This document shows positions 1-37,143 of a DNA stretch of 42,644 nt, piece by piece. The notes under the pieces were generated by a model. It was not told the DNA's origin. It did no database searches and saw nothing but the letters and a program-made list of their open reading frames with translations. The translations under genes were made by a program, and so were the position numbers. Positions within the stretch are counted from its first letter, which is position 1. Every line of letters starts with the position of its first letter. The stretch comes from Deltaproteobacteria bacterium (lineage in GTDB: Bacteria > Desulfobacterota > Binatia > UBA9968): the NCBI GenBank assembly GCA_016874755.1, contig VGTH01000047.1, positions 1 to 42,644 of the forward strand, read 5' to 3'.

Positions 1-194
1 GCTGACCAGTCGCCGGGTCACCCGCTCGATTATACCGCCCCAAACTGCCGCCCAGCATCCGCGTCTACGTATGTGCCGTTGACCGTCGGTGCGGAACCTT
101 AGAGCGGAGTTATGGACGATGCCAACGTGTATGGCTTGGCCTCGATGAGTATGCTAAGAAACTCCGACTCTTGGTCTGTGTTAGGAGTGTGGGA

Positions 195-1172
195 ATGCTA
201 AAGCTCGTTGTTATCGGCTTACTATTTCTGTGCCTTTCATCGGTAGACGCGACGGCCCAAACCAAGCGCATCGCCGTCGCCTACAGCGCGGTCAGCGCGA
301 CACAATCTTCGTTCTTCGTCACCAAAGAGGCTGGCCTGTTTGAAAAGCATGGCCTCTACGTCGATCCGGTTTACGTCGCCAGCGGCACCAAGGTCGCCCA
401 AGCGGTCATCGCCGGTGAGTTTCCCGTCGCTCTGGCCGGCGGCACCGTGGTCAACGCGACGTTAGCGGGCGGTGATATCGTCATCATCGGCGGCTTGGTC
501 AACGTGCCGTCGTTCTACGTTTACGTTCATCCGTCGATCAAACGCCCTGAAGATCTCAAAGGCAAAGCCATCGGCATCACCACCTACGGTTCGTCCACGG
601 ATTTCTCAATCCGCTATTTGATCAAGAAATGGGGCATGGAGCCCGAACGAGATATCAAAGTCTTGCAAATGGGTGGGCAGCCGCAGATCGTCGCCGCCAT
701 GATCGGCGGCAGCGTGCAAGGCGGCGTGTTGTCATCGCCGTCCAACTACCGCGCTGCGAAGGCGGGATTTAGCCTGCTAACGGATTTCAAAAAAGTTGGC
801 CTCGACTACCCAACGGTCAGCATCGTCTCGACGCGCTCGTTCATCAAGAAAGATCCGCAAACGGTGCGCCGCTTCATGATGGCCTACAGCGAAGGCGTCG
901 AGCGGCTCTATCGCGACAAAGAGTTCACCATGAAAGTCATCGGCAAATACACCAAGACCGATGACCGTGAAGGCTTGGAGTCCGGCTACGCGTTTGCGAC
1001 CACGTTCATCGAACGCCCGCCGCGCCTGCCCTACAAAGCCGTCGAAACCATCCTGGCGCAAATCGGCGAAAAGGATCCCAAAGCCCGCGAAGCGAAACCG
1101 GAAGAATTCATCGACGCGACTTTTTACAACGAAATGGAAAAAAGCGGCTTCTTCAAGAGCATCGCTCGCTAA
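195..1172 (+). CDS. NitT/TauT-family ABC transporter substrate-binding protein
   Basis: This is a periplasmic solute-binding protein of the NMT1/THI5-like (SsuA/TauA/NitT) type, 325 aa. Residues 1 to about 22 form a Sec signal peptide (LVVIGLLFLCLSS core, likely cut after DATAQ). Family features follow: an AGLFEKHGL segment, a GEFPVALAGG stretch, and a lobe beginning KRPEDLKGKAIGI. I chose the ATG at 195 because AGGAG lies 8 nt upstream; a TTG at 171 would only add a hydrophilic leader. It heads a run of three SBP genes, 22 nt before the next start, with no permease or ATPase nearby. The ligand cannot be read from sequence; small organic or aromatic acids are inferred from the neighbours. Confidence 0.85.
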   Translation: MLKLVVIGLLFLCLSSVDATAQTKRIAVAYSAVSATQSSFFVTKEAGLFEKHGLYVDPVYVASGTKVAQAVIAGEFPVALAGGTVVNATLAGGDIVIIGGLVNVPSFYVYVHPSIKRPEDLKGKAIGITTYGSSTDFSIRYLIKKWGMEPERDIKVLQMGGQPQIVAAMIGGSVQGGVLSSPSNYRAAKAGFSLLTDFKKVGLDYPTVSIVSTRSFIKKDPQTVRRFMMAYSEGVERLYRDKEFTMKVIGKYTKTDDREGLESGYAFATTFIERPPRLPYKAVETILAQIGEKDPKAREAKPEEFIDATFYNEMEKSGFFKSIAR

Positions 1173-1194
1173 GTTTAGGTCACAGGAGTACGAA

Positions 1195-2199
1195 GTGAGA
1201 TTAATTATTTTGACTATTACTTTTGCGTTTTTTGCGTCTTTTGCGGCCACTCCTCCGACTCCACTCTACGCCGGCGAAGCCGGCCTGACCACCATTCGCT
1301 ACGCCGTCAGCGGCCGCACCGCCGCCGACTGGCCGGTGCAGGCAGCGAAAGAGAAGAAGTTTTTCCACAAACACGGGCTTTTCCTAGAGGAGATCATCAT
1401 TCCCGGAGGGCCGAACACTGTCCGCGCCGTCATTAGCGGCACTGTGCCGTTGGGCCGGATTAATCCGGACCGGATCATCGAAGCCGCCGAAAAAGGCGCC
1501 AAGGCCAAAGTCATCTCCGGCGATCTGCAAAAGCTGCCCTACGATTTTATGGCGCGCAGCGAAATCAAAACCGGCGCAGAGCTGAAAGGCAAAGTGATCG
1601 GCGTCGACTCCCTCACTGGCGGCACGACGTTCATGCTCACCGAGGTGGCGCAAAAAGCGTTCAACCTTTCTGAAAAAGACTACAAGCTGCTCGTCGTCGG
1701 CACATCGCCAGAGCGCTACGCCGCGCTCAAGGGCGGCTCGGTGCACGCCTCCTTCATGGGGCCGCCATTTAACATCCGCGCGATCAAAGATGGCTTTACC
1801 AAGCTGACCAACTTTCACGACTACCTCGGGCCCATTCAATTCGTCGGCACCTTCGCCCACGAAGACTTTCTAAAGGCCAACCGCGGCGACGCCGTACGGT
1901 TTGTCCGCGCCATCATCGAAGGCACGCGCTGGCTCTACGATCCGCGCAACAAAGAAGACGCCCTGGCGCTGCACATGCAAGCGCTGAAATCGAACCGCGA
2001 AGGTGCCGAGGCCGACTACAAATACATGGTCGAGGAGTTCAAACCGTGGCCAACAGACGGCGCGATCAATAAACAAGCGATCGCGAAAACCATGGAGCTG
2101 CGCGTCAAAGCCAACAAGTACGAGCCCGGCAAAGTGCCGCCCTACACGAACTATGTCGATCTGTCGATCGCCGAGGAAGCGGTGAAGGGGCTCAGATAA
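1195..2199 (+). CDS. NitT/TauT-family ABC transporter substrate-binding protein
   Basis: A second periplasmic binding protein, 334 aa, clearly paralogous to the next gene: both carry RYAV-GRT, VVGTSP-RYAALKGGSV, EFKPWP and KTMELRVK blocks along their whole length. The frame stays open upstream into the previous gene, but the GTG at 1195 has AGGAG 7 nt before it and starts a proper signal peptide (LIILTITFAFFASFAA, mature from about AGEAG). It lies 22 nt after the previous stop, so the two are probably co-transcribed. Part of the signal peptide is coded by a TTTGCG-rich tract resembling an intergenic repeat found elsewhere in the window. The ligand is unknown. Confidence 0.85.
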   Translation: MRLIILTITFAFFASFAATPPTPLYAGEAGLTTIRYAVSGRTAADWPVQAAKEKKFFHKHGLFLEEIIIPGGPNTVRAVISGTVPLGRINPDRIIEAAEKGAKAKVISGDLQKLPYDFMARSEIKTGAELKGKVIGVDSLTGGTTFMLTEVAQKAFNLSEKDYKLLVVGTSPERYAALKGGSVHASFMGPPFNIRAIKDGFTKLTNFHDYLGPIQFVGTFAHEDFLKANRGDAVRFVRAIIEGTRWLYDPRNKEDALALHMQALKSNREGAEADYKYMVEEFKPWPTDGAINKQAIAKTMELRVKANKYEPGKVPPYTNYVDLSIAEEAVKGLR

Positions 2200-2278
2200 G
2201 TTTTGAGTTCCGGGTTTCGCGTTTCGGGTCATTCAAAAAAGCCACGACGCAACCTCAACAAGAACAAGGAGACTTCTG

Positions 2279-3307
2279 ATGAGGAGCAATCAAACTAGTT
2301 TGACTGCGCGCGCGGCGCGCGCCTTTGCGCTCTTTGCGTTCTTTGCGGTTAACCATCCGAATCTTCTCTCCGCCGGTGAAGCCAACCTGGCCACCGTGCG
2401 CTACGCGGTCACTGGGCGCACCTCCACCGACTGGCCGTGGTTCATCGCCAAAGAGAAGCGGCTCTATCAGAAACACGGAATTTTTCTTGAAGACATCATC
2501 ATCCAAGGCGCGGCCAACACCACCCGCGCCGTGATCAGCAACACGCTGCCCGTGGGCCGCATCGCGCCGGATTTCGTCATGGAAGCGGTCGACCGGGGCG
2601 CCAAAACCAAAATCATCGCCGGCGACATGAATAAAATTCCCTACGACCTCTACGCCCGCGCCGATATCAAAACCGGCCAAGAGCTGCGCGGCAAGACTCT
2701 CGGGGTAAGCGCCCTCTCGGGCGGCACGACAGCGATGCTCGAAGAAGTTTTGGAAAAAGCCTTCGGCCTGACGCGCAAAGACTACCAGGTGCTCGTCGTC
2801 GGCACCTCGCCGGACCGCTACGCCGCGCTCAAAGGCGGCTCGGTTGCGGCGACCATCATGGCGCCGCCGTTCACCTTCCGCTCTCAAAAAGATGGTTTTC
2901 GCCGGCTGGTGCAATTTCACGACGTGCTTGGCCCCATCGATTTCGTCGTCTCGTTTGCCCACGACGACTACGTCAAAAACAACCGCGCCGAGTTGGTGAA
3001 ATTCACCAAGGCAATGATCGAAGCGGCGCGCTGGCTCTATGATCCAAAGAATCGAGAAGAGGCGCTGGCCATTCACATCAAGTATCTCAAAGGCAACCGC
3101 GAAGGCGCTGAGAACGATTACAAATATCTGGTCGAGGAATTCAAACCCTGGCCCCTCGACGGCACCACCAGTAAACAGGGCATGGACAAAACCATGGAGC
3201 TGAGAGTCAAAGGCGGCAAATACGAAGGCAAAAAAGTCCCGCCGCTCGGCCACTACATCGACTACACCATCGCCGAAGACGCCAAAAAGGAGCTGGGAAT
3301 AAAATAG
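2279..3307 (+). CDS. NitT/TauT-family ABC transporter substrate-binding protein (paralogue of upstream gene)
   Basis: A third SBP, 342 aa, co-linear with and roughly 60 percent identical by eye to the gene before it, so a tandem duplication is likely. The ATG at 2279 has AAGGAGA 6 nt upstream. The signal peptide is built on ARAFALFAFFAV, coded at about 2319-2350 by a CTTTGCG-repeat tract. The mature part has the two-lobe NMT1-like layout with KTGQELRGKTLGV, LVVGTSPDRYAALKGG and a C-terminal EFKPWP block. The 79-nt gap before it holds a GTTTCGGG-type repeat unit (2205-2230) that recurs at 19378-19404. The gene is followed by a palindromic repeat at 3317-3391, which may end the transcript. Confidence 0.85.
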   Translation: MRSNQTSLTARAARAFALFAFFAVNHPNLLSAGEANLATVRYAVTGRTSTDWPWFIAKEKRLYQKHGIFLEDIIIQGAANTTRAVISNTLPVGRIAPDFVMEAVDRGAKTKIIAGDMNKIPYDLYARADIKTGQELRGKTLGVSALSGGTTAMLEEVLEKAFGLTRKDYQVLVVGTSPDRYAALKGGSVAATIMAPPFTFRSQKDGFRRLVQFHDVLGPIDFVVSFAHDDYVKNNRAELVKFTKAMIEAARWLYDPKNREEALAIHIKYLKGNREGAENDYKYLVEEFKPWPLDGTTSKQGMDKTMELRVKGGKYEGKKVPPLGHYIDYTIAEDAKKELGIK

Positions 3308-16259: not shown

Positions 16260-17399
16260 ATGCGCGCTATGAGTGAGCCATTGCAGCAGCAAAACGTGGG
16301 CATACAGTTTACCGAGCGGCGAGCGGGAAAGTCGTCAATCGGCATCATCACCCTCGACAATCCGCGCGCGCTCAACGCGCTCAACCTCGCCATGTTTGCG
16401 GCCATGGAACGCCAGCTGCTCGATTGGCGAGCGCGCGATGAGATGGCTTGCCTTATCTTGCACGCCGACTCGGAGAAAGCCTTCTGCGCCGGCGGCGATG
16501 TCAAGGCACTGGTGCTCGGGCTGCAAACCGGCCCCGGCATCCAGATCGGCGTCGACTACTTCACCGCCGAATATTTCGTCGATTACTTGATCCACACTTA
16601 TCCTAAACCGATTCTTTGCTGGGCTGACGGCATTACGATGGGCGGCGGCATCGGCATTATGAACGGCGCGTCCTGCCGCGTGGTCACCGAGCGCACCATG
16701 CTAGCAATGCCGGAGATCGGCATCGGCCTTTATCCGGACGTCGGCGGCACGGCATTTTTAAACCACATGCCGGATGGCACCGGTCTGTTTCTTGGCCTCA
16801 CCGCCGCACGCTTCGGCGGCGCCGACGCGGTGGCCATCGGCATGGCTGATTTCTTGATGCACGCCGACGGCAAGCAGCAAGCGTTAGCCGGCTTAGAAGC
16901 GCTCCCGTGGACCAGTGATGGCGCCGCCAACAAGAAAATGCTGCGCGACTATCTGGTGAAGACCGCTGCCCAAGCCGGCCCATCCGACGTGATCGAACGC
17001 CACGCGCAGATCAAACAACTCACGCTGCACCCGACGATGGATGCCGTCGATAGCGCCCTGCGCCATTGGCAAGGTGACGATGTTTGGATGAAAAACGCCA
17101 TTCACGGATACCTCAGCGGCTCGCCAACGTCTGCCAAAGCCATCTTCGAGCAAGTGCGCGGCGGCAAGAATCTTTCATTAAGAGAAGTCTTCCTGCGCGA
17201 GTGGGACATGTCGCTTAACTTCTGCGCCAAGTCCGACTTTCGCGAGGGCGTGCGCGCGAGATTGATCGACAAAGATCAAAAGCCGCAATGGAACCCGCCG
17301 ACGCTAGCCGCAGTGGACGACAACGAGATCGCCAGGGTGTTTTCCAAGCAGCACGGCCAGCCGGATTTGCTGGCGGCAAAATTCAGCCGGCAAGTTTGA
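16260..17399 (+). CDS. Enoyl-CoA hydratase/isomerase family, 3-hydroxyisobutyryl-CoA hydrolase-like
   Basis: A 379-aa crotonase-fold protein of the longer HIBYL-CoA hydrolase group. The oxyanion-hole regions are [10 protein letters not shown] (about residues 79-88) and MGGGIGI. The catalytic region reads [17 protein letters not shown], with the E and D that in HIBCH replace the hydratase pair. It would hydrolyse or hydrate a branched or hydroxyacyl-CoA. ATGs at 16260 and 16269 are both possible; neither has a strong ribosome site. The 247 nt upstream hold no gene and probably the promoter. It opens a plus-strand run that continues, after 11 nt, with the SBP-fold protein at 17411. Confidence 0.8.
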
Positions 17400-17410
17400 A
17401 CGGGAGTGCC

Positions 17411-18379
17411 ATGAGCCAACCCATCGAAGTCGAGTTCCCCGTGATGCGCTACGACATCACGATGCCGCTGCTCGAAGGGCGAGTGCCCATCGACGGGGTC
17501 ACGCTAAAACCGGTTAAGTCGTCATCGATGATCAACAAGGAAGACCCCAAGCTCAAGGCCGGCGATTTCGGCCTGATGGATTTGAACATTGGCTATTTTC
17601 TGCCGGCCATCGAGGCGGGCTGGGAAATCATCGGCCTGCCGGTCTTCTCCAAGCGCAAGCCGGTTTATCAGCTAGTTTTTTGCCACGTCGACTCGGGCAT
17701 CCGCGCGCCGAAAGATCTCGCCGGCAAAAAGATCGGCTCGCGCACTTATCGCACCGCGCTGACGGTTTGGGCGCGCGGACTCTTGAAAGAACGCTACGGC
17801 GTCGATTTCTCGCAAGTCCAATGGGTGCTGCAAGCCAAAGAAGTTTTTCCCGTGCATGACGACAAAGTGAAGATCGACTACGTCGACGAGAGCAAGAATA
17901 TGTCACAGCGGCTGATTGCCGGCGAGCTGGACGCGCTGATCACCGACATCTCCGACACCAAGATGTTCGAGAATTTAGAGAACAATCCCAAGATCAAGCG
18001 GCTGTTTCCCGACTACGTGGAGGAAGATCTCGACCTCTACAACGACACCGGCATTTTCACGCCGGTGCATATGATCGTCATGAGCCGCGAGCTCGACCGC
18101 GAGCGGCCAGAATTGGCGGCGAAATTCTGCGCCGCCTTTGAGAAAGCCAAGGCGCTCGCTTACGACGATAGTCTAAGCGACCGCGGCGGTTTCTCCGTGG
18201 TATACCTGCGCGAGCAGCTAAAAGAACAACTGGCAAAGTGGGGCGACCCCTGGAAGTACGGCATCAACGCCAACAAGAGCACGATTGACGCGTTTGTAAG
18301 ATACAACGTCGAGCAAGGAATGGTTCGTAAGGCGATGTCGTATGCCGAGATGTTTGCAGCAGGAACCCTGGAGACCTGA
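17411..18379 (+). CDS. 4,5-dihydroxyphthalate decarboxylase-like / NMT1-like solute-binding fold protein
   Basis: A 322-aa protein without a signal peptide. It has the type II periplasmic-binding fold features seen in proteins annotated as 4,5-dihydroxyphthalate decarboxylase: YDITMPLLEGRVPIDGV at the N-terminus, FGLMDLNIGYFLPAIEAGW, IRAPKDLAGKKIGSRTYRTA and GELDALITDI. The real activity of this family is uncertain; members may be enzymes or cytoplasmic ligand binders. The ATG at 17411 has GGGAG 5 nt upstream, 11 nt after the HIBCH-like gene, so the two are co-transcribed. The phthalate-type link fits the Rieske and ring-cleavage genes elsewhere in the window. Confidence 0.7.
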   Translation: MSQPIEVEFPVMRYDITMPLLEGRVPIDGVTLKPVKSSSMINKEDPKLKAGDFGLMDLNIGYFLPAIEAGWEIIGLPVFSKRKPVYQLVFCHVDSGIRAPKDLAGKKIGSRTYRTALTVWARGLLKERYGVDFSQVQWVLQAKEVFPVHDDKVKIDYVDESKNMSQRLIAGELDALITDISDTKMFENLENNPKIKRLFPDYVEEDLDLYNDTGIFTPVHMIVMSRELDRERPELAAKFCAAFEKAKALAYDDSLSDRGGFSVVYLREQLKEQLAKWGDPWKYGINANKSTIDAFVRYNVEQGMVRKAMSYAEMFAAGTLET

Positions 18380-18470
18380 AACAGCTGAAACGCGGAAAGC
18401 TGAAAATGAGAAATTTTCGATCCGACCAATCCGTCGGATCCGACCGATTAGGCTGAACCAGGAGTAGTCC

Positions 18471-18626
18471 ATGTTATCGCGCGAAGACAACGAACTAATC
18501 ACCCAAACCAACGCCGGCACGCCGGCCGGCAACTTGATGCGCCGCTACCGGATCCCGGCGCTCTTAGATGTCCTACTGGGCGCGCAAGAAGGCCGTTTCC
18601 CAAATCATTCACTGAGCCCAAGATGA
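18471..18626 (+). pseudogene. N-terminal fragment of a Rieske aromatic oxygenase
   Basis: The 51-codon reading MLSREDNELITQTN...GTPAGNLMRRY...IPALL matches the start of Rieske alpha subunits, including the intact one in this window (MISDEENQLLTQTN...GKPAGQLLRRY). Homology ends after about 32 residues; the Rieske cluster and iron site are gone, and the tail GAQEGRFPNHSLSPR is unrelated. AGGAG lies 9 nt before the ATG, so the start signals survive. The stop overlaps the ATG of the class II aldolase gene (TGA 18624-18626, ATG 18623), which suggests that the deletion joined the oxygenase start to the aldolase leader. Confidence 0.75.
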
Positions 18627-19369
18627 AAACCAACAACCCCAAAACCAGCCGCGCTCAAGTCAAAGTCGCCGAACAAGAGCTCGCCATCGCCTGCAAGATT
18701 CTCGAATGGGAGATCGGCGACATCTGGGGCCACGTCGGCGTGCGCCTCCCCGACAACAAAGGCATCGCGGTGCAAATGTTTCGCCCCGCCGATGAAGACA
18801 AAAAGCCTTGGGTCGTCCACTTCGACTATAATATCAGGAAGCTTGCCGGGGTCGGTACGCCGCCCCGCGAAGCCGTTATCTACACGGAAATCTTCAAAGC
18901 GCGCCCCGACGTCAAGGCCGCGGTGCATTGCCACGCCTCCACCTGCGTTGCCATGAGTCTTGCCGACAAACCGGTTTCCTGTGTGCACATGCAATCGGGA
19001 CGTTTCGGCACCGGGGTGCCGATCTACCCGCGGCCGATCTATATTCTAGACGAGGACGAGGGCGCCGATCTGGCGCGCACCTTGGGCGATGCCAAGGGCA
19101 TGATGATCAAAGGCCACGGCATCGTCACCGTTGGGACATCGATCGACGAAGCCTGCTTCAACGCGGTCTACATGGAGCGTACGGCGAAAATCATGACCAC
19201 CGCCAACTCCTTCGGCTTCCGCGCGGTTCCGGCGGATTTCATCGACACTTTGGCCGGCAGCAAAGAGAAACTTCTCCCCCGTGGCAAGCCCATGTCCCAT
19301 TCGGCGGAGTGGAAATACTACGCCGCCAAAGTCAGGAAGGGAGAGACCTGGAATCGCGGCGGATTATGA
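18623..19369 (+). CDS. Class II aldolase/adducin family protein
   Basis: A 248-aa class II aldolase-like enzyme, expected to bind Zn2+ through H-x-H in VHCHASTCVAM and a third histidine in MIKGHGIVTVG. Relatives cleave or epimerise phosphorylated sugars (fuculose, ribulose) or decarboxylate or retro-aldol-cleave hydroxy acids; 4-hydroxy-4-methyl-2-oxoglutarate-type or HCOMODA-type chemistry would fit aromatic catabolism but cannot be read from sequence. The start overlaps the stop of the Rieske fragment. A hairpin terminator lies about 75 nt downstream. Confidence 0.8.
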   Translation: MKTNNPKTSRAQVKVAEQELAIACKILEWEIGDIWGHVGVRLPDNKGIAVQMFRPADEDKKPWVVHFDYNIRKLAGVGTPPREAVIYTEIFKARPDVKAAVHCHASTCVAMSLADKPVSCVHMQSGRFGTGVPIYPRPIYILDEDEGADLARTLGDAKGMMIKGHGIVTVGTSIDEACFNAVYMERTAKIMTTANSFGFRAVPADFIDTLAGSKEKLLPRGKPMSHSAEWKYYAAKVRKGETWNRGGL

Positions 19370-19444
19370 GAATCGTTTCGAGTTCCGGGTTTCGCGTTTC
19401 GGGTTGAGAATGCATTCAACGCCAAGTAGACGTATCCGACGTAT

Positions 19445-19472
19445 GGGCGCGATTCATCGCGCCCTTCTTTTT
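19445..19472 (+). terminator. Rho-independent terminator
   Basis: GGGCGCGAT (from 19445) pairs with ATCGCGCCC (to 19464) around a 2-nt centre, followed by TTCTTTTT. It lies after the class II aldolase gene and 25 nt before the next SBP gene, so the downstream SBP probably has its own promoter or is reached by read-through. The stem also resembles a common GGGCGCGATTCATCGCGCCC intergenic repeat. Confidence 0.65.
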
Positions 19473-19496
19473 GTGACCACAAAATGAGGGGAACAC

Positions 19497-20480
19497 ATGT
19501 TCAAAAGATTCTTCGCCGTCGCGTTCCTGATTTTCGCACTCCCTATTATTGTCCGCGCCCAGGAAACCAACCTGGTCGCCTACGCCGGCTTCGCCGGCTT
19601 CCAAGCGCCGGTCTGGGCGCCCAAAGATTTAGGATTGTTCAACAAATACGGCTTCAACGGCGATCTGGTTTTTATCTCCGGCTCGGTGCGCCAGCTCCAA
19701 GCGCTGCTCGCCAACAGCATACAATTCGGCCAGGTTGACGCCGCGACAGCGCTCAACGCGATCAATAACGGCGCCGAACTGGTAATCATATCGGGCTCGC
19801 TGAATAGCTTTCCATACAGCTTCGTAACGACAAAAGAGATTCGCCGACAGGAAGATTTGGTTGGCAAAAAAATCGGCATCCTCGCCGTCGGCGGTGCCAC
19901 CGAAACCGCGACGTTCCTCATGCTCAAAGCATGGAACATCCCGCGCACCGCGGTGACAATTTTTCCCGCCGGCGATTCCGCTTCGCGCATCATCGGCATT
20001 TCCACCAAAGCCATCGACGGCACCATGCTCTCCTACCCTGATATTAATGAAGCGCTACGGTTGGGCATGCACGAGCTCGCCAAAATGAATGAAGTCAAAG
20101 GCACTTCATTCCCGATGAACGTCATGGTGGCGCGCCGTTCTTTCGTCGAAAAAAATCGCGAGACTGTAAAACGCTTTCAACAGGCCCATGCCGAAGGTGT
20201 CTACCAGTTCATGAACAACAAAGAGCGCGGCTTGGCCGTGCTGTCGAAGTGGCTCCGTTTCAAAAACCCGAAAGCGATCGAAGAGACCTACCAGTATTTC
20301 GCCAAGAGCTTTGCCTTCCCCACCCGCGTCTCCCACGAAGGCCTGCGCAACACGCTGGAGATCATCGCTCAACGTACGCCGTCCAGCAAAGTCGACATGA
20401 CCATCAGTAAGTATCTCGATGAAAGCACCCTCGACGAGCTCGAGCGCGAGGGCTTCTTCAAACGGCTGGCGGGGAAATAA
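19497..20480 (+). CDS. NitT/TauT-family ABC transporter substrate-binding protein
   Basis: A 327-aa periplasmic SBP. The signal peptide is MFKRFFAVAFLIFALPIIVR, cut near RAQE. The mature part has APKDLGLFNKYGFNGDLV, QALLANSIQFGQVDAATAL, IRRQEDLVGKKIGILAVGG and the TRVSHEGLRNTLE C-terminal block usual for this family. GAGGGG before the ATG supports the start. It follows a terminator and is followed, after an 88-nt palindromic repeat, by a family 1 SBP. No transporter membrane or ATPase genes are nearby. Ligand unknown. Confidence 0.85.
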   Translation: MFKRFFAVAFLIFALPIIVRAQETNLVAYAGFAGFQAPVWAPKDLGLFNKYGFNGDLVFISGSVRQLQALLANSIQFGQVDAATALNAINNGAELVIISGSLNSFPYSFVTTKEIRRQEDLVGKKIGILAVGGATETATFLMLKAWNIPRTAVTIFPAGDSASRIIGISTKAIDGTMLSYPDINEALRLGMHELAKMNEVKGTSFPMNVMVARRSFVEKNRETVKRFQQAHAEGVYQFMNNKERGLAVLSKWLRFKNPKAIEETYQYFAKSFAFPTRVSHEGLRNTLEIIAQRTPSSKVDMTISKYLDESTLDELEREGFFKRLAGK

Positions 20481-31526: not shown

Positions 31527-32387
31527 CTACGATGCCGGCAGCTGCGGCTCCAGCGCCGTCGACTGCGTGCCATGCTTCTGGTCGACAAGTTCCATGTAGA
31601 CGGTGCCAAAAACGATTTTGCTGGTAAGCATCACCGGCACGCGCCGCTCGTCGGCGGAAATCCAGATGGCCGCCTCGTTTAGCCGCTGCGCGTAACCGTT
31701 TTTCATCAAATTCTTTACCCGCGGCAAGATTTTAAAAGCGTCGACGTTGCCGGATTTGATCTTGATCGTCTCACGCTTCTCAACTTCAAGGTCGAGCAGA
31801 TAGCGGTACTTACCGCCAAAGATGTGAAAATAAAGGTGGTCGCCAACTTTGATGTCCTGGCTGCGCGCCAGGTACACTGCCGTAATTGGGTCGAGGGTGT
31901 TCAGCGGCTGATCGAAATCGTAGTTTTTGACTTTCTTCCGCTCATCGCGCCGCACGGTCCACTTCTTGGTGGGGGCGTCATATTGCGCCACGGTATCGAT
32001 CACTTTGGAGTTCTCGCGCTGGCTGAAGGTAAACTTGCTGGGCGCAAGGGTCTTGGCTTCGATGGTCGAGGTGATCGTGTCGCGCATCTTCCAGACGAAG
32101 TCCAGGGCGCGCGACGACTTCGCCTCGACCCGAACGTTGTAGAACTTTTTACCGTCGATGATTTGCGGCGTCGTGACAATCTCGGCGCGCGCCACCGAAA
32201 TCAGGCCGTTCCAGTTGGTGTCATAGACCACTCGCTCACCGGAGTCGAAGGGATAAAACTTCGGCTGGTAGACGGGTACGCTTTTCGCTTCCGCGCCGGC
32301 CTGGGCGGCCCAAACGCTGCCGGAAGACAGCACCAAACCGAGCATAACCCGGCAACTCGTCTGCCTGATGGTTTTGGCAAGATTCAT
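31527..32387 (-). CDS. DUF3108 domain-containing exported protein
   Basis: A 286-aa exported protein of the DUF3108 family. The signal peptide has MLGLVLSSGSVWAAQAGA as its core. The mature part begins PFDSGERVVYDTNWNGLISV, the family's opening strand, and ends with AAIWISADERRVPVMLTSKI, also characteristic. It is a beta-rich periplasmic protein of unknown function. An ATG at 32414 is also in frame; I prefer 32387 because AAGGTG and GAG precede it and it gives a normal leader (MNLAKTIRQ). It is divergent from the Cys/His-rich protein at 32528. Confidence 0.8.
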   Translation of the reverse strand: MNLAKTIRQTSCRVMLGLVLSSGSVWAAQAGAEAKSVPVYQPKFYPFDSGERVVYDTNWNGLISVARAEIVTTPQIIDGKKFYNVRVEAKSSRALDFVWKMRDTITSTIEAKTLAPSKFTFSQRENSKVIDTVAQYDAPTKKWTVRRDERKKVKNYDFDQPLNTLDPITAVYLARSQDIKVGDHLYFHIFGGKYRYLLDLEVEKRETIKIKSGNVDAFKILPRVKNLMKNGYAQRLNEAAIWISADERRVPVMLTSKIVFGTVYMELVDQKHGTQSTALEPQLPAS

Positions 32388-32527
32388 CTCACACCTTAGA
32401 CGTCTGATTTCCAATACTATTTACTGCGCTTGCCGCTTTGAGTAAAGCCATCGGCGCCTGGATTAATTGCAGCGAAAGGGGAGCTGGGCTAGTATTTTGA
32501 CAATTTCCCGAAAAGGAGTCCCCGTTG

Positions 32528-33697
32528 GTGACGCGCCTTCGAATCGCATTGGCTCGCTCGTTCTGGTTATCGGTAGTTTTGGGCTTTTATTTTGCCGCAA
32601 CCGCACACGGTCAAGCGACCGTTCCTGACAAATCCACGACGCTACCGTCTGCCCAGGCCATCAAAGCCTGTATGGGCGGTGCCCAGAGCGCCGAATGCTT
32701 GGACCAATTGTTTCGCGATGCGCTGAAGAAGCACTCCACCCTCGACGTTCTCAAACAAATTCAGCGCTTCGAAGCGACCGATACCGACCTGCGCCGCGAC
32801 TGCCACCCGGTGGTCCATGCTGTCGGACGCGAGACCTTTCTCCTTAAGGGCACCATTCACGATTCGTTCTCGGCCTGCGATCAGACCTGCCATTCCGGCT
32901 GCTACCATGGCGCGGTGGAGCGCTTTCTACGCGGCGATGCCGTTTATGGTCAGACCTATCGACATCCCAACCAAAATGAGCTTAAACAAAAGGCCGCCGC
33001 GGCCTGCGACCCCAAAACACCGCTGCGCTTTCGCTATCAATGCCTGCACGGTCTCGGCCACGCTATCATGTATTTCGCGAGCTACAATCTGACCAACTCG
33101 CTGGAAATCTGTGACGCCCTCGAGGACGAATGGAGCCGGAGCTCCTGCTATGGCGGCGTGTTCATGGAGAACGTGTCCAACGCCATCAACGAAAAAAAGA
33201 ACTTCAGCCCCACCGACTATCATGCTCCCTGCAATCGCTTGGATGCCAAGTACCGCAACGACTGCTACATCATGCAAACCTCGCGCATGACCGAAATGGG
33301 CTTGTCCGCCGAACGGGTGTTGGAGGAGTGCGCCAAAGCCGGCGAGTTTGCCGACTCCTGCGCGCTCTCGCTGGGTCGCGACCTGTCCAACGATTCGCGC
33401 GTCGGCAAGAGCCCGGCGGTCGCGAAAAAGTGCGAGATGGCGAGCGGCTCAACCCTCCAAGCCTGCGTCCGGGGCGTGATCTTCGCACTCATCGATAACA
33501 CTTGGGACGGCCGCTACGCCCTTCCCTTTTGCCATCGTCTCGCCAGCGCGCTGGACCAAGACTATTGCTTTAAGGAAAGCGGGCAATACATTGCCGGCTA
33601 TTTTCCGGAACCCGCCGCAGACATGGGCCAGCAGTGCGCGCGCTATGTGCCGGAGTCGCCGCGCTGCACCGGCAACCCGGTGGCGCAGAACCAATAG
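32528..33697 (+). CDS. Exported Cys/His-rich repeat protein of unknown function
   Basis: A 389-aa exported protein: signal peptide ARSFWLSVVLGFYFAATAHG, cut near GQA. The mature part has 20 cysteines, mostly in short helical units, and repeated Cys/His motifs: CHPVVHAVGRETF, TCHSGCYHGAVERF, CLHGLGHAIMYF and CYGGVFMEN. One stretch, CDQTCH, has a C-x3-C-H arrangement. The layout suggests a disulfide-stapled helical repeat with a His cluster that could bind metal or haem. I recall similar motifs in uncharacterised archaeal and bacterial proteins but know no function. AAGGAG 9 nt before the GTG at 32528; a TTG at 32525 is the alternative start. Confidence 0.75.
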   Translation: MTRLRIALARSFWLSVVLGFYFAATAHGQATVPDKSTTLPSAQAIKACMGGAQSAECLDQLFRDALKKHSTLDVLKQIQRFEATDTDLRRDCHPVVHAVGRETFLLKGTIHDSFSACDQTCHSGCYHGAVERFLRGDAVYGQTYRHPNQNELKQKAAAACDPKTPLRFRYQCLHGLGHAIMYFASYNLTNSLEICDALEDEWSRSSCYGGVFMENVSNAINEKKNFSPTDYHAPCNRLDAKYRNDCYIMQTSRMTEMGLSAERVLEECAKAGEFADSCALSLGRDLSNDSRVGKSPAVAKKCEMASGSTLQACVRGVIFALIDNTWDGRYALPFCHRLASALDQDYCFKESGQYIAGYFPEPAADMGQQCARYVPESPRCTGNPVAQNQ

Positions 33698-33805: not shown

Positions 33806-34210
33806 ATGGCTGAAGCTGTTTTGATGGTCATCGACGATGAGCTCGGCGTACGCGAATCGCTCAAGATGGTTTTCTCCAACGACTTCCGGCTCATCGAGGC
33901 AGACGCGGTGGATGTCGCTCTGCCGAAAATCGACAGCGAGCGGCCCCATGTGATTCTTTTAGACGTCCTTCTGCCGCGCACCGATGGCATCGCAGCGCTC
34001 AAACAAATCAAAGCACTCCACCCTGCCTGCGAGGTGATCATGCTCACGGCATTGAACAATCGCCAGATCGCCAGCGCCGCCTTGGACTACGGCGCCTTCG
34101 ACTTTGTCGGCAAGCCGTTCGACGTCGTCGACCTGCGCGCCAAGGTCAACCGCGCGTTGGTCAAGATATTTCAAGCCCGCGCCGTTCCCGTCGCCGAAAC
34201 CTCTGAATGA
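33806..34210 (+). CDS. Stand-alone response regulator receiver domain
   Basis: A 134-aa CheY-like protein with only the receiver domain. The acidic pocket is D10 and D11, the phospho-acceptor is D53 (VILLDVLLPRTDG), the switch residues are T81 and K103 (GKPFD). No output domain and no histidine kinase are in the window, so it must relay a signal from elsewhere. The nearest genes (the Cys/His-rich protein upstream, a methyltransferase-fold lipoprotein downstream) do not suggest a target. The ribosome site is weak (GGAAGATGA). Confidence 0.85.
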   Translation: MAEAVLMVIDDELGVRESLKMVFSNDFRLIEADAVDVALPKIDSERPHVILLDVLLPRTDGIAALKQIKALHPACEVIMLTALNNRQIASAALDYGAFDFVGKPFDVVDLRAKVNRALVKIFQARAVPVAETSE

Positions 34211-34304: not shown

Positions 34305-34976
34305 ATGAAATCAGCGCAAACCCAGTTTGCTCTCTGCTTGCTGCTACTGCTCGCCGGCTGCGCTACCCTCAAGCAGTGCGCCTACGAGGGCGTCAACCGC
34401 GACCAGTGGCAACACCCCGACAGGGTGATCGCCGCGCTTAAGATAGCACCGGGAGCCCGGGTCACCGATCTCGGCGCCGGTAGCGGCTACTTCACCTTTC
34501 GCCTGGCGCACGCAGTGGGCGCAGAGGGCGTTGTCTATGCCGTCGACGTCGACCAGGACATGATCGCGCTGGTGCAAGCCAAAGCCACAGAGCAAAACGC
34601 TGGCAACATCCGCACCGTGCAAGCTAAGAGCGACGATCCCCAGTTGCCGGAAAACGTCGATCTCGTTTTCACCAGCAACACCTACCATCACATCGATGGC
34701 CGCGTGGTCTATTTCAAAAACCTGCAAAGACATCTGCGGCCGGGCGCCCGCGTCGCGATCATCGATTTCGACCGCCGTGCCGCCTGGCTCGACCGCCTGT
34801 GGACCCACTACACGCCGAGCAGCTTCATCAAGAGCGATATGCAGCAGGCGGGCTACCTGCTCGCGCAGGAGTTCGACTTTCTCGATCGGCAATCGTTTCT
34901 CATTTTCACGCCACTGGCTCAAGCTCCGCGAGCTGGCCGAGCAGACTCTCCACCTCGCGCGGCTCCCGCAAGTTGA
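34305..34976 (+). CDS. Lipoprotein with class I SAM-dependent methyltransferase fold
   Basis: A 223-aa protein joining a lipoprotein signal (FALCLLLLLAGC, lipobox LAGC) to a methyltransferase domain. Motif I is VTDLGAGSGYFTF, followed by YAVDVDQDM (the acidic residue that would bind the SAM ribose) and a VDLVFTSNTYHHI motif. SAM is not expected in the periplasm, so either it uses another ligand or the fold is reused. The ATG at 34305 gives a clean leader; an upstream ATG at 34245 would bury it. The last 71 nt overlap the 3' end of the convergent trehalose gene. Confidence 0.8.
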   Translation: MKSAQTQFALCLLLLLAGCATLKQCAYEGVNRDQWQHPDRVIAALKIAPGARVTDLGAGSGYFTFRLAHAVGAEGVVYAVDVDQDMIALVQAKATEQNAGNIRTVQAKSDDPQLPENVDLVFTSNTYHHIDGRVVYFKNLQRHLRPGARVAIIDFDRRAAWLDRLWTHYTPSSFIKSDMQQAGYLLAQEFDFLDRQSFLIFTPLAQAPRAGRADSPPRAAPAS

Positions 34977-37143
34977 AGCGCGCCAGGGTGCGCGCAATGC
35001 CGACGCGGATCGACCAGGCATCCTTGGGCAGCATCGCGAATAGCTCTTCGTCGTCGAGGTCGTCGCCGATGGCCAGCACAAAGTCGCTGGGCCGATCCAC
35101 CGAGAGTTGCCGCACTGCGTTGGCTTTGCTAATGCCGGAGTTGCGCACTTCCACCGTCTTGCTGCCCTGGACCACTTGCACATCGATATTGCCGGTGAAG
35201 TTGAGCAAATCATCGGTCAGCTCGCGCGCCATGACCATCCCTTGCTCGGCGTCAGCGCGGCGATAGTGCCAGACCAACGACAGTTCTTTTTCTTCGACGA
35301 ATGCCCCCGGCAAGCGGTCGCTGTAGAGCTGCAAGATCGGCAGCAGCTTGCTTTTCCAATCCGCGCCGGCGCTCTGTGAGGCGCGCCAACAGGCGGTTCG
35401 CGACCTGACCCAGGCGCCATGTTCCGCGACCAAACCGATCGGCAGCGCACCGAACCATCTTTGCAGCGTTGCCCGGTCGCGGCCACTGACGATCACCAGG
35501 CGATTTTCTTTGGTGGCGCCGAGCCGCAGCAGCACATCGAGCAAAGCCGGTCCGGGTTTCGCCGACTTGGGCTCTGGCGTAAGCGACACTAGCGTGCCGT
35601 CATAGTCGAGCAAAAGCAGTCGCGCACGGCTGTTGCGGTAGGCCTCGATCAGCGCTTTGCGCTCAGTGTCGCCCAGGAGCTTGGCGAAAACGCGGTCACG
35701 GTTAGGCCGCGCCGCTTGCAGCTCGCTCAAAAAGTCGGCCGCCCAGCGCGCCAGGTCGTAGCGCTGCAAACGGCTTTGCATGATTTCCATGCGCCGGCGC
35801 TGTTCCTCCTCCGGCATCTCCAACGCTTCTAGCAACGCCTGGGCAATCTCCTGGCGATTGTTCGGATTGATCAAGATCGCCTCGCCCAATTCGCGCGCCG
35901 CGCCGGCCATTTCGCTCAATACCAAGACACCGGTTTGGTCGCGCCGGCAGGCGACATATTCTTTGGCGATCAAATTCATGCCATCGCGCAGCGGCGTGAT
36001 TAGAGCCACGTCGGCGAGCGCGTAGAGGGCGACCAACGCGTCGAAGGATTGCGCCCGGTACTGATAGAGAATCGGCGTCCAGCCGACGCTGCCAAAGCGG
36101 CCGTTGATCTGGCCGACGCGCTCTTCGATTTCCTTTTTCATGCGCTCGTAGTCTTCGATACCGATGCGCGACGGCACCACCACCATCAACAACGTGACTC
36201 GTCCGCGCCACGCCGGATACAGTTCGAGCAGCGTTTCAAAGCCGAGGAGCCGATGCAGAATTCCCTTTGAATAGTCTTGGCGGTCGATCGACAGAATCAC
36301 GCGGCTGCCCGCCAGGGTTTGTTGCAGGGTCGCTCTCTCTCCCGCCACCCCAGCGCTCGCCGCCGCTGCGCTAAACTTGTCGAAGGGCACGCCCATCGGA
36401 AACGTGCCCGCCTTTACAGTGCGGTCTTGGACCAGCAGCTTGCCCATTTGGTGTTCGTGCCCGAGGACACGCAGGACGCAGCGCAGAAAGTATTGCGCGT
36501 AGTCGAAGGTATGAAAGCCGATGACGTCGGCTCCCAACAAGCCGGTGAGAATTTCACGGCGCCATGGCGCCGGCAACAGACGAAACACTTCGTAATGCGG
36601 AAACGGAATATGGAGAAAAAAGCCGATGGACAATGGCGGCATCTGCGCGCGAATCAACTCCGGCAACAGCATCAGATGGTAGTCATGAATCCACAAGAGA
36701 TCGCCCGGCTTGAGCACCTCCAGGGCGGCATCGCAAAACGCCTGGTTGACTCTGCGATAGTGCTCCCAGAATTCCGGCTCGTAGCGCGCATAGAGCGGGA
36801 AATAATGAAACAACGGCCAGATCGTCTTGTTACAAAAACCCGCGTAGAACGCTTCGACGAGGTCGGGAGAGAGAAACACCGGATAGGCATGAAAGCGCGC
36901 CTGCGCTTCGGCCTTCACGTAGCCGCGCAACTTGGGACTGACCGCATCGCCCGGCCAACCGATCCAGAGATACTCGGCCTGGCCAATGTCGGGCAGCTTC
37001 GAGGGCTGCAGCAATGCTTGCAGGCCGGTGGCGACACCGCCGGCGCTCTCCTTGAACGCGACGGTGCCGCTACTCTCCTCCACCGTGAAGGGCAAGCGGT
37101 TTGACACCAGCACGATGCGTTTGGCGGCGCCGTTGTTGTCCAT
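34906..37143 (-). CDS. Bifunctional trehalose-6-phosphate synthase/phosphatase
   Basis: A 745-aa fusion. Residues 1 to about 470 are a GT20 trehalose-6-P synthase (RIVLVSNRLPFTVEE, WIGWPG, WIHDYHLMLLPELIR, LHIPFPHYEVFRLLP, DYSKGILHR, ITPLRDGMNLIAKEYVAC). Residues from about 500 are a HAD-type trehalose-6-phosphatase (LLLLDYDGTLVSL, IVSGRDRATL, AEHGAWVR, AIGDDLDDEELF). Together they turn UDP-glucose and glucose-6-P into trehalose, an osmo- and desiccation protectant. Fused forms are known in several bacterial groups and in eukaryotes. Three small exported proteins are transcribed towards it from upstream. Confidence 0.95.
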   Translation of the reverse strand: MDNNGAAKRIVLVSNRLPFTVEESSGTVAFKESAGGVATGLQALLQPSKLPDIGQAEYLWIGWPGDAVSPKLRGYVKAEAQARFHAYPVFLSPDLVEAFYAGFCNKTIWPLFHYFPLYARYEPEFWEHYRRVNQAFCDAALEVLKPGDLLWIHDYHLMLLPELIRAQMPPLSIGFFLHIPFPHYEVFRLLPAPWRREILTGLLGADVIGFHTFDYAQYFLRCVLRVLGHEHQMGKLLVQDRTVKAGTFPMGVPFDKFSAAAASAGVAGERATLQQTLAGSRVILSIDRQDYSKGILHRLLGFETLLELYPAWRGRVTLLMVVVPSRIGIEDYERMKKEIEERVGQINGRFGSVGWTPILYQYRAQSFDALVALYALADVALITPLRDGMNLIAKEYVACRRDQTGVLVLSEMAGAARELGEAILINPNNRQEIAQALLEALEMPEEEQRRRMEIMQSRLQRYDLARWAADFLSELQAARPNRDRVFAKLLGDTERKALIEAYRNSRARLLLLDYDGTLVSLTPEPKSAKPGPALLDVLLRLGATKENRLVIVSGRDRATLQRWFGALPIGLVAEHGAWVRSRTACWRASQSAGADWKSKLLPILQLYSDRLPGAFVEEKELSLVWHYRRADAEQGMVMARELTDDLLNFTGNIDVQVVQGSKTVEVRNSGISKANAVRQLSVDRPSDFVLAIGDDLDDEELFAMLPKDAWSIRVGIARTLARFNLREPREVESLLGQLAELEPVA

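What the first reader, a model, noticed from the sequence alone, without database searches (positions are those of the whole stretch)
32528..33697. Exported protein with 20 cysteines and repeated Cys/His motifs, function unknown
The motifs CHxxxHxxG, CxSGCYHG, CLHGLGH and CYGG recur through the first half, with paired cysteines in helical units throughout. The histidines cluster in the same segments, pointing to a metal or haem site inside a disulfide-rich solenoid. I know of no characterised member.
Basis: partly seen in the sequence, partly recalled or inferred. Interest (0 to 1): 0.6.

Follow-up and report, generated by a model that had tools for sequence, protein, structure and literature searches.

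The report
Exported five-histidine, ten-disulfide copper-linked protein
This gene encodes an exported protein from an undescribed family, found in bacteria and archaea, whose chain is probably pinned by ten disulfide bonds and carries five almost unchanging histidines; relatives are fused to known copper proteins, so it most likely binds copper outside the cell membrane.

Summary
In detail: window 32525-33697 (+) encodes a 390-aa, probably exported protein with 20 cysteines (5.1%; 27 other window ORFs have 0-2.3%). No Pfam, NCBIfam, PHROGs or PDB sequence family matches it. Relatives are widespread but patchy: Binatia, Gemmatimonadota, Patescibacteria, Actinomycetota, Chloroflexota and several archaea.

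In 105 non-redundant rows, five histidines (94, 98, 128, 175, 179) are all kept in 104; the window protein's other aligned histidines in at most 36. The 20 cysteines fall into ten pairs that come and go together (one pair: both 48, one 0, neither 46), so they are most likely disulfides. AlphaFold2 gives a confident all-helical repeat protein (pLDDT 92.8) with no convincing PDB relative.

Gene fusions hint at the chemistry: relatives are joined to CopC-CopD copper-import domains, to a four-histidine cupredoxin (25 genes), and to cytochrome c (3 of 3 Solirubrobacteraceae). One sits beside the oxidase assembly factor CtaG.

Best reading: an extracytoplasmic copper-binding module, stiffened by disulfides, that captures or hands over copper, perhaps redox-active. 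Copper binding and clustering of the histidines are inferred, not shown. Haem is less likely. New family; new variant of a known kind of system.

The parts
32525..33697 (+). CDS of the exported five-His / ten-disulfide protein, 390 aa (TTG 32525 or GTG 32528 start)
   Evidence: family
32512..32518 (+). ribosome-binding-site-like aaaggag
   Evidence: read from sequence
32525..32614 (+). probable Sec signal peptide (residues 1-30)
   Evidence: by eye; no predictor run
32801..32830 (+). residues 93-102, CHxxxHxxGR: His94 and His98; Cys93 pairs with Cys122
   Evidence: H94 105/105, H98 104/105; C93-C122 both 48, one 0, none 46, 1 gap
32876..32920 (+). residues 118-132, CxxxCxSGCYHGxxE: His128, Glu132; Cys118-Cys126 pair
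   Evidence: H128 105/105; E132 E72 Q19 D6 of 105; C118-C126 both 78, one 0, none 16, 1 gap
33041..33061 (+). residues 173-179, CLHGLGH: His175 and His179; Cys173 pairs with Cys161
   Evidence: H175 and H179 105/105; C161/C173 both in 95/95
33146..33172 (+). residues 208-216, CYGGVFMEN: Met214; Cys208 pairs with Cys196
   Evidence: M214 98/105; C196/C208 95/95
33230..33667 (+). residues 236-381: five further disulfide hairpins (236-247, 269-279, 303-314, 336-348, 371-381)
   Evidence: helices in model
31527..32414 (-). divergent DUF3108 gene, with like genes beside the family gene in four close relatives (L065, L077, L090, L091)
   Evidence: Pfam PF11306 E 4.1e-36; cluster 32
33806..34210 (+). 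downstream receiver-domain-like gene; similar genes in L065, L077, L091
   Evidence: cluster 16 (which also holds L062, L070, L074); function by eye

Best explanation
It is an exported, extracytoplasmic copper-binding protein. Shown by computation: ten cysteine pairs that co-occur as disulfides would, an all-helical repeat fold (confident model), five near-invariant histidines at like positions of the first three hairpins (HxxxH, HxxxE/Q, HxxxH) followed by a near-invariant Met, and joining of the same domain in other lineages to CopC-CopD, to a four-His cupredoxin and to cytochrome c. Inferred: the disulfides staple each helical hairpin into a stiff scaffold; the histidines of the first three hairpins face the same side and form one mono- or polynuclear copper site; the protein takes up, holds or passes on copper (to or from a CopC/cupredoxin-type domain, or to copper enzymes of the periplasm), possibly with a redox step, which would explain the cytochrome c partner. 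In the window's organism it acts as a single free-standing protein whose partner is unknown.
For: All five His kept in 104 of 105 non-redundant rows against 1-36 of 105 for the window's other aligned His; also in 42 of 43 rows that lack both genome-scan seed patterns. Co-occurrence of Cys pairs without exception in nine pairs. AlphaFold2 pLDDT 92.8, pTM 0.91, all helices. CopC over Pfam cut-off in L133-L136, CopD over cut-off in the same ORF in L133 and L135 and L134. Cupredoxin_1 over cut-off in L064, L100, L137, L139; 30 of 152 family ORF rows, 25 distinct genes, carry such a domain. Cytochrome c domain in L055, L057, CXXCH also in L084. Kitasatospora member next to Caa3_CtaG, E 7e-74. B. 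subtilis YcnJ is CopC-CopD-YtkA, with Cu(II) bound by CopC (PMC12362106, abstract and passages), YtkA linked to CuA assembly (PMC13344008, passages); here the new domain takes YtkA's place.
Against: No metal has been measured and no coordinates were available to show that the His cluster. The window protein itself has no copper domain, and no copper gene was recognised beside it; its genome has four CopD matches, three over cut-off, all on other contigs. CopD was not found in 8 of 17 family-carrying genomes searched. The fused cupredoxin lacks a Cys next to its HxH in 24 of 25 genes, so it is not a standard type 1 electron carrier. Most kept relatives (Binatia, Gemmatimonadota) have no recognised fusion. 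Fusions show that domains work together, not which metal this domain binds.
Confidence: 0.5

Rival explanations
1. A secreted oxidoreductase: the five-His site is a catalytic (copper or di-metal) centre, and the cupredoxin or cytochrome c domain fused to relatives is its tethered electron partner, as in NirK fusions (recalled).
For: Two unrelated redox-type domains are fused to the same module in different lineages; five His plus an E/Q and a Met is more than a simple carrier site usually needs; haem neighbours in L160 (protoglobin E 3.9e-26; cytochrome b5-like, below cut-off).
Against: The cupredoxin lacks the usual Cys ligand in 24 of 25 genes; no known enzyme fold was seen; the CopC/CopD fusion speaks for copper handling.
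Confidence: 0.28
2. A haem-binding protein: His pairs ligate b-type haem in a disulfide solenoid (part of the first reader's suggestion).
For: Near-invariant His pairs; cytochrome c and protoglobin partners in some loci.
Against: No CXXCH in the domain itself; five conserved His where haem needs one or two; copper-type domains are by far the commonest fusion.
Confidence: 0.08
3. A zinc or other non-redox metal site, or a purely structural/ligand-binding solenoid in which the His are part of the repeat motif.
For: The His lie in a motif that recurs in the repeat register; all-helical repeat proteins often bind ligands or partners.
Against: Repeats 4-8 have no conserved His while repeats 1-3 keep them in 104 of 105 rows; copper and redox fusions.
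Confidence: 0.14

Closest known systems
YcnJ of Bacillus subtilis (CopC-CopD-YtkA) and YcnI (DUF1775)
   Same: In L133-L135 the family domain follows CopC and CopD on one chain, in the place of YtkA; extracytoplasmic; linked to copper.
   Different: The window protein matches no Pfam model, so none for YtkA, CopC, CopD or DUF1775, and none of these is listed for 14 members; helical and disulfide-rich; no membrane domain in the window protein.
Cupredoxin_1 (PF13473) proteins
   Same: 25 relatives carry such a domain N- or C-terminal to the family domain.
   Different: Cupredoxin is a separate beta domain (recalled), here with HxxH and HxH and, but for L070, no Cys beside the HxH; absent from the window protein.
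Sel1-like disulfide repeat proteins such as Helicobacter Hcp (recalled)
   Same: Exported, helical hairpins, one disulfide per repeat.
   Different: No Sel1 match in Pfam at E up to 10; no invariant His known to me there; here ligand-like His in repeats 1-3.
NirK-type enzymes with fused cupredoxin or cytochrome c (recalled)
   Same: Same logic of tethered redox domains.
   Different: NirK is itself built of cupredoxin domains; this domain is helical and matches no cupredoxin model.

Membership tests
YcnJ/CopCD copper-import family | CopC domain (PF04234) with His-brace copper site | tested here: not met
   No Pfam match of the window protein at E <= 10; met only in relatives L133-L136
YcnJ/CopCD copper-import family | CopD membrane domain (PF05425) | tested here: not met
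   Window protein: none; relatives L133, L135, L134 have it
Cupredoxins | Cupredoxin fold / Pfam cupredoxin models | tested here: not met
   the window model is all helical
c-type cytochromes | CXXCH haem-attachment motif | tested here: not met
   CXXCH in only 3 of 152 family ORF rows, N-terminal to the family domain; none in the window protein
Sel1/Hcp repeat proteins | Sel1 repeat (PF08238) | tested here: not met
   No Pfam match of the window protein at E <= 10; Sel1 not among the two families listed for 14 members at E <= 1
Any solved alpha-solenoid family | Fold match covering most of the domain | tested here: inconclusive
   Foldseek best E 3.9e-2, TM 0.21 and 0.57 for the His half; VIA best Z 6.7, rmsd 5.2, 174 aligned, and Z 5.9, rmsd 4.9, 126 aligned
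Copper-binding protein (function, not family) | Binds copper with defined stoichiometry | not testable with these tools
   Needs metal analysis of purified protein
Copper-binding protein (function, not family) | Ligand residues close in space | not tested
   Model coordinates were not returned; helices and register only

The most novel reading that the evidence does not exclude
A new class of extracytoplasmic metalloprotein: a helical solenoid pinned by about ten disulfides that builds a polynuclear copper centre from three HxxxH/E-type steps, shared between bacteria (including Patescibacteria with up to eight copies) and archaea, and plugged as one module into copper import, cupredoxin and cytochrome c systems.
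Probability: 0.3. Interest if true: 0.85.

Novelty: new variant of a known kind. Interest (0 to 1): 0.62.

Why it matters
How bacteria recognise and take up copper outside the membrane is poorly understood (stated in the opening text of PMC12362106). This family, which I could not match in Pfam, NCBIfam or PHROGs, gives a testable new copper-linked module in many uncultured lineages, among them small-genome Patescibacteria, of which two had seven and eight matched domains. Its fusions make the hypothesis cheap to test: express one domain, measure metals, then mutate five histidines.

Tried and rejected
Family look-ups: Pfam and NCBIfam for the window protein, PHROGs and Pfam for 14 members (two weak Pfam hits, each in one member), NCBIfam for 8 diverse members (hits only to the CopC and cytochrome c parts, below cut-off), PDB sequences (two chance hits at E 0.46 and 1.5): no family for the domain. 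PADLOC was not searched. Phages: no match. Viral contigs: 31 and 60 pattern hits, none confirmed. First genome-contig scan with the single protein: 37 pattern hits, none confirmed.

Dropped or uncounted rows: L016 and L017 are wrong-frame chance hits, as their translations show. 17 of 163 domain rows do not cover all five His columns: cut contigs, split or broken ORFs, masked DNA (L138) and L147. L147 reads in full but appears by eye to have no His at position 94; its aligned row starts behind that column, so it is not in the count, and it is a likely second exception. L149 (HYHHH) lies in a broken ORF and is the one counted exception. Of 144 confirmed relatives only the best 80 were kept, so distant ones are under-sampled.

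Cupredoxin caveat: the 26 copies from which I built the cupredoxin profile were picked with a pattern that already demanded the HxxH and HxH, so their invariance there proves nothing by itself. Two further genes found by the profile alone (L100, L173) keep both motifs.

Gene neighbourhood: clustering of neighbours of 81 loci gave no convincing conserved partner; clusters that span phyla were ordinary types by eye (an enoyl-CoA-hydratase-like enzyme, receiver domains, ABC transporter ATPases). My simple gene caller fails in GC-rich loci and missed some family genes themselves, so this is weak. In four close relatives (L065, L077, L090, L091) DUF3108, Gly-zipper and M48-like genes recur (the last name is by eye). 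No copper gene was recognised near the window gene.

Fold searches: full model and His half alone gave only generic helical repeats.

Papers: searches gave listings only (one gave none). I read passages of PMC12016527, the abstract, opening text and passages of PMC12362106, and passages of PMC13344008, PMC12931201 and PMC6744442. Nothing I saw describes this family; the library lacks most subscription journals.

Full report
What is there. The window codes, at 32525-33697 on the + strand, for a 390-residue protein with 20 cysteines and 12 histidines. TTG 32525 and GTG 32528 are both possible starts behind a GGAG. The first 30 residues look like a signal peptide (by eye). Cys content is 5.1%, against 0-2.3% in 27 other ORFs of the window. 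One copy was found in its genome.

No known family. The window protein has no match in Pfam, NCBIfam or PDB sequences at E up to 10, nor do 14 members, the window's included, in PHROGs at E up to 0.1. A profile finds nothing convincing in the PDB.

Distribution. Among 97 relatives of the genome, itself included, 14 have the gene. In a spread of 395 genomes of the phylum 3 were reported, the own genome and two that I reject as wrong-frame hits; with a profile 2 of 297, the own genome and one weak hit at E 5e-4. A scan of GTDB genomes with a seven-member alignment matched 525 stretches, of which 144 encode relatives; the best 80 were kept. By record titles they come from Binatia, Gemmatimonadota, many Patescibacteria lineages, Woesearchaeota, Micrarchaeota, a Nitrosopumilaceae archaeon, Chloroflexota, Solirubrobacteraceae and other Actinomycetota, Myxococcales and 'Deltaproteobacteria'. 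In the phyla of L084 and L094 the family occurs in 9 of 246 and 10 of 239 genomes, counting the two centres. So it is widespread but patchy. On a quick tree of 109 domains the window sits with Binatia-type sequences, and in a set of 12 (SH-aLRT 98) with Parcubacteria, a Sungiibacteriota, a Giovannonibacteria and a Myxococcales sequence, which are 45-52% identical to it. Transfer between distant lineages is likely, though misplaced contigs in metagenome bins cannot be excluded.

Disulfides. In an alignment of 95 domains (A3) the 20 window cysteines fall into ten pairs that come and go together: C93-C122 both in 48, one alone in 0, neither in 46; C118-C126 78/0/16; C269-C279 and C303-C314 93/0/2; C161-C173, C196-C208, C236-C247 and C336-C348 both in all 95; C371-C381 86/0/0 with 9 gaps; C49-C58 63/2/1 with 29 gaps. 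Nine of the ten pairs are 8-12 residues apart. This is the pattern of structural disulfides and argues against Cys as metal ligand.

Histidines. Of 163 domain rows found in the loci scanned, 146 cover the five columns and 145 have all five His. After thinning at 70% identity to 105 rows, the window's included, H94, H128, H175 and H179 are kept in 105 and H98 in 104; the window protein's other aligned His are kept in 1 to 36; Met214 is kept in 98; position 132 is E in 72, Q in 19, D in 6. The genome scan was seeded with patterns around two of the motifs, which could inflate this, but 43 thinned rows contain neither pattern and 42 of them keep all five. L147, not counted because its aligned row starts too late, seems by eye to lack the first His. 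In repeat register the first three hairpins read HxxxH, HxxxE/Q and HxxxH, the fourth carries Met214, and the later ones have no conserved His. Cys93, next to His94, co-occurs with Cys122, six residues before His128, in 48 of 94 sequences, which would put these two segments close together (inference).

Structure. AlphaFold2 on A3 gave pLDDT 92.8 and pTM 0.91, all helices; the His half alone gave 93.4 and 0.88. The five His lie on three long helices, separated by shorter ones (model residues 68-83, 96-111, 142-159; add 25 for window numbering). PDB searches found only generic helical repeats: best Foldseek E 3.9e-2 with TM 0.21, best VIA Z 6.7, rmsd 5.2 over 174 residues; for the half, E 0.57 and Z 5.9, rmsd 4.9 over 126 residues, to a designed repeat protein. 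This does not show that the fold is new. Coordinates were not returned, so clustering of the His is untested.

Fusions and neighbours. Three kinds of fusion appear. (1) CopC-CopD: in genomes of the phylum of L084, L133-L136 carry CopC over Pfam's cut-off (only the C-terminal part of CopC in L133); L133 and L135 also CopD, and L134's ORF too in a genome-level search. (2) Cupredoxin: 30 of 152 family ORF rows, which are 25 distinct genes, in Patescibacteria, Woesearchaeota, Chloroflexota, genomes of the phylum of L084, one 'Deltaproteobacteria' MAG (L063, which groups with Patescibacteria) and one unassigned bacterium (L092). It is over Pfam's cut-off in L064 and L100, L137 and L139, below it in L058, L087 and L092, and not listed for L146. 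These copies carry WPAS, HxxH and HxH; 26 were picked by a pattern that demanded the two His motifs, and two more genes found by profile alone keep them too. Only L070 has a Cys beside the HxH, so they look like type 2 rather than blue copper sites (inference). (3) Cytochrome c: three of three Solirubrobacteraceae members (L055, L057, L084) have one CXXCH N-terminally; two were tested against Pfam and pass the cut-off. The Kitasatospora member lies just before a Caa3_CtaG gene (E 7e-74) and after a carbonic anhydrase gene. In Patescibacteria there are proteins with two family domains, tandem arrays, and free cupredoxin genes nearby.

How it most likely works. B. subtilis YcnJ is a CopC-CopD-YtkA protein; its CopC binds Cu(II), a CopD histidine is needed for its function, and YtkA is linked to CuA assembly (PMC12362106; PMC13344008). 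In L133-L135 the new domain takes the place of YtkA. With the cupredoxin fusions and the CtaG neighbour, the simplest account is an extracytoplasmic copper module: a stiff disulfide-stapled solenoid presenting a five-His (plus Met/Glu) site that takes, holds or passes copper, perhaps with electron transfer where cytochrome c is attached. That the domain binds copper, that the His form one site, and the direction of transfer are inferred. The main rival is a copper (or other metal) oxidoreductase with a tethered redox partner; haem and zinc are less likely.

Verdict. The protein is not a member of the CopC, CopD, cupredoxin, Sel1 or cytochrome c families by the tests made. Nothing I saw in print describes it, within a library that lacks most subscription journals.

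Noticed in passing
L094:2827-9863; L170 (G913:C1:66000-83999); L096:1165-4594; L071:6460-10188: Patescibacteria carry tandem arrays of family genes, with 7 and 8 matched domains in two genomes of about 1 Mb; the divergent copies that cover the columns keep the five His.
   Followed up: partly
L058, L064, L069, L083, L086, L094, L098, L100: Proteins of 670-900 aa with two family domains in one chain; seven of the eight also carry a cupredoxin domain (the ORF of L098 starts at the locus end).
   Followed up: partly
L083, L086, L094 (genes next to the family genes): Another exported Cys-pair protein type ('YPVxELGxCxxxxxCxxFCxDPVNYxxCxxFAKxxGFY') sits beside the family genes in Microgenomates; no Pfam match for the one tested (L086:4935-7367).
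   Followed up: no
L160:246-2457: A family gene is followed by a cytochrome-b5-like gene (Pfam E 0.0068, below cut-off) and a protoglobin gene (E 3.9e-26).
   Followed up: partly
L058:1276-2147: An ArsR-type regulator and a small, by eye exported, protein lie divergently upstream of the Woesearchaeota two-domain member, suggesting metal-responsive control.
   Followed up: partly
L011-L014; L019: Extra His-rich stretches (such as PHHTHQGEHHHA) in Binatia-type members and Gemmatirosa, possibly further metal binding.
   Followed up: no
window 171-3307, 17288-20480: Several NMT1/ABC-type substrate-binding-like genes in one window, recognised by eye.
   Followed up: no
window 34906-37143 (-): Looks like a fused trehalose-phosphate synthase/phosphatase (by eye).
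   Followed up: no
window 31527-32414 (-) with L065, L077, L090, L091: DUF3108 gene recurs beside the family gene in four close relatives; functional link unknown.
   Followed up: partly
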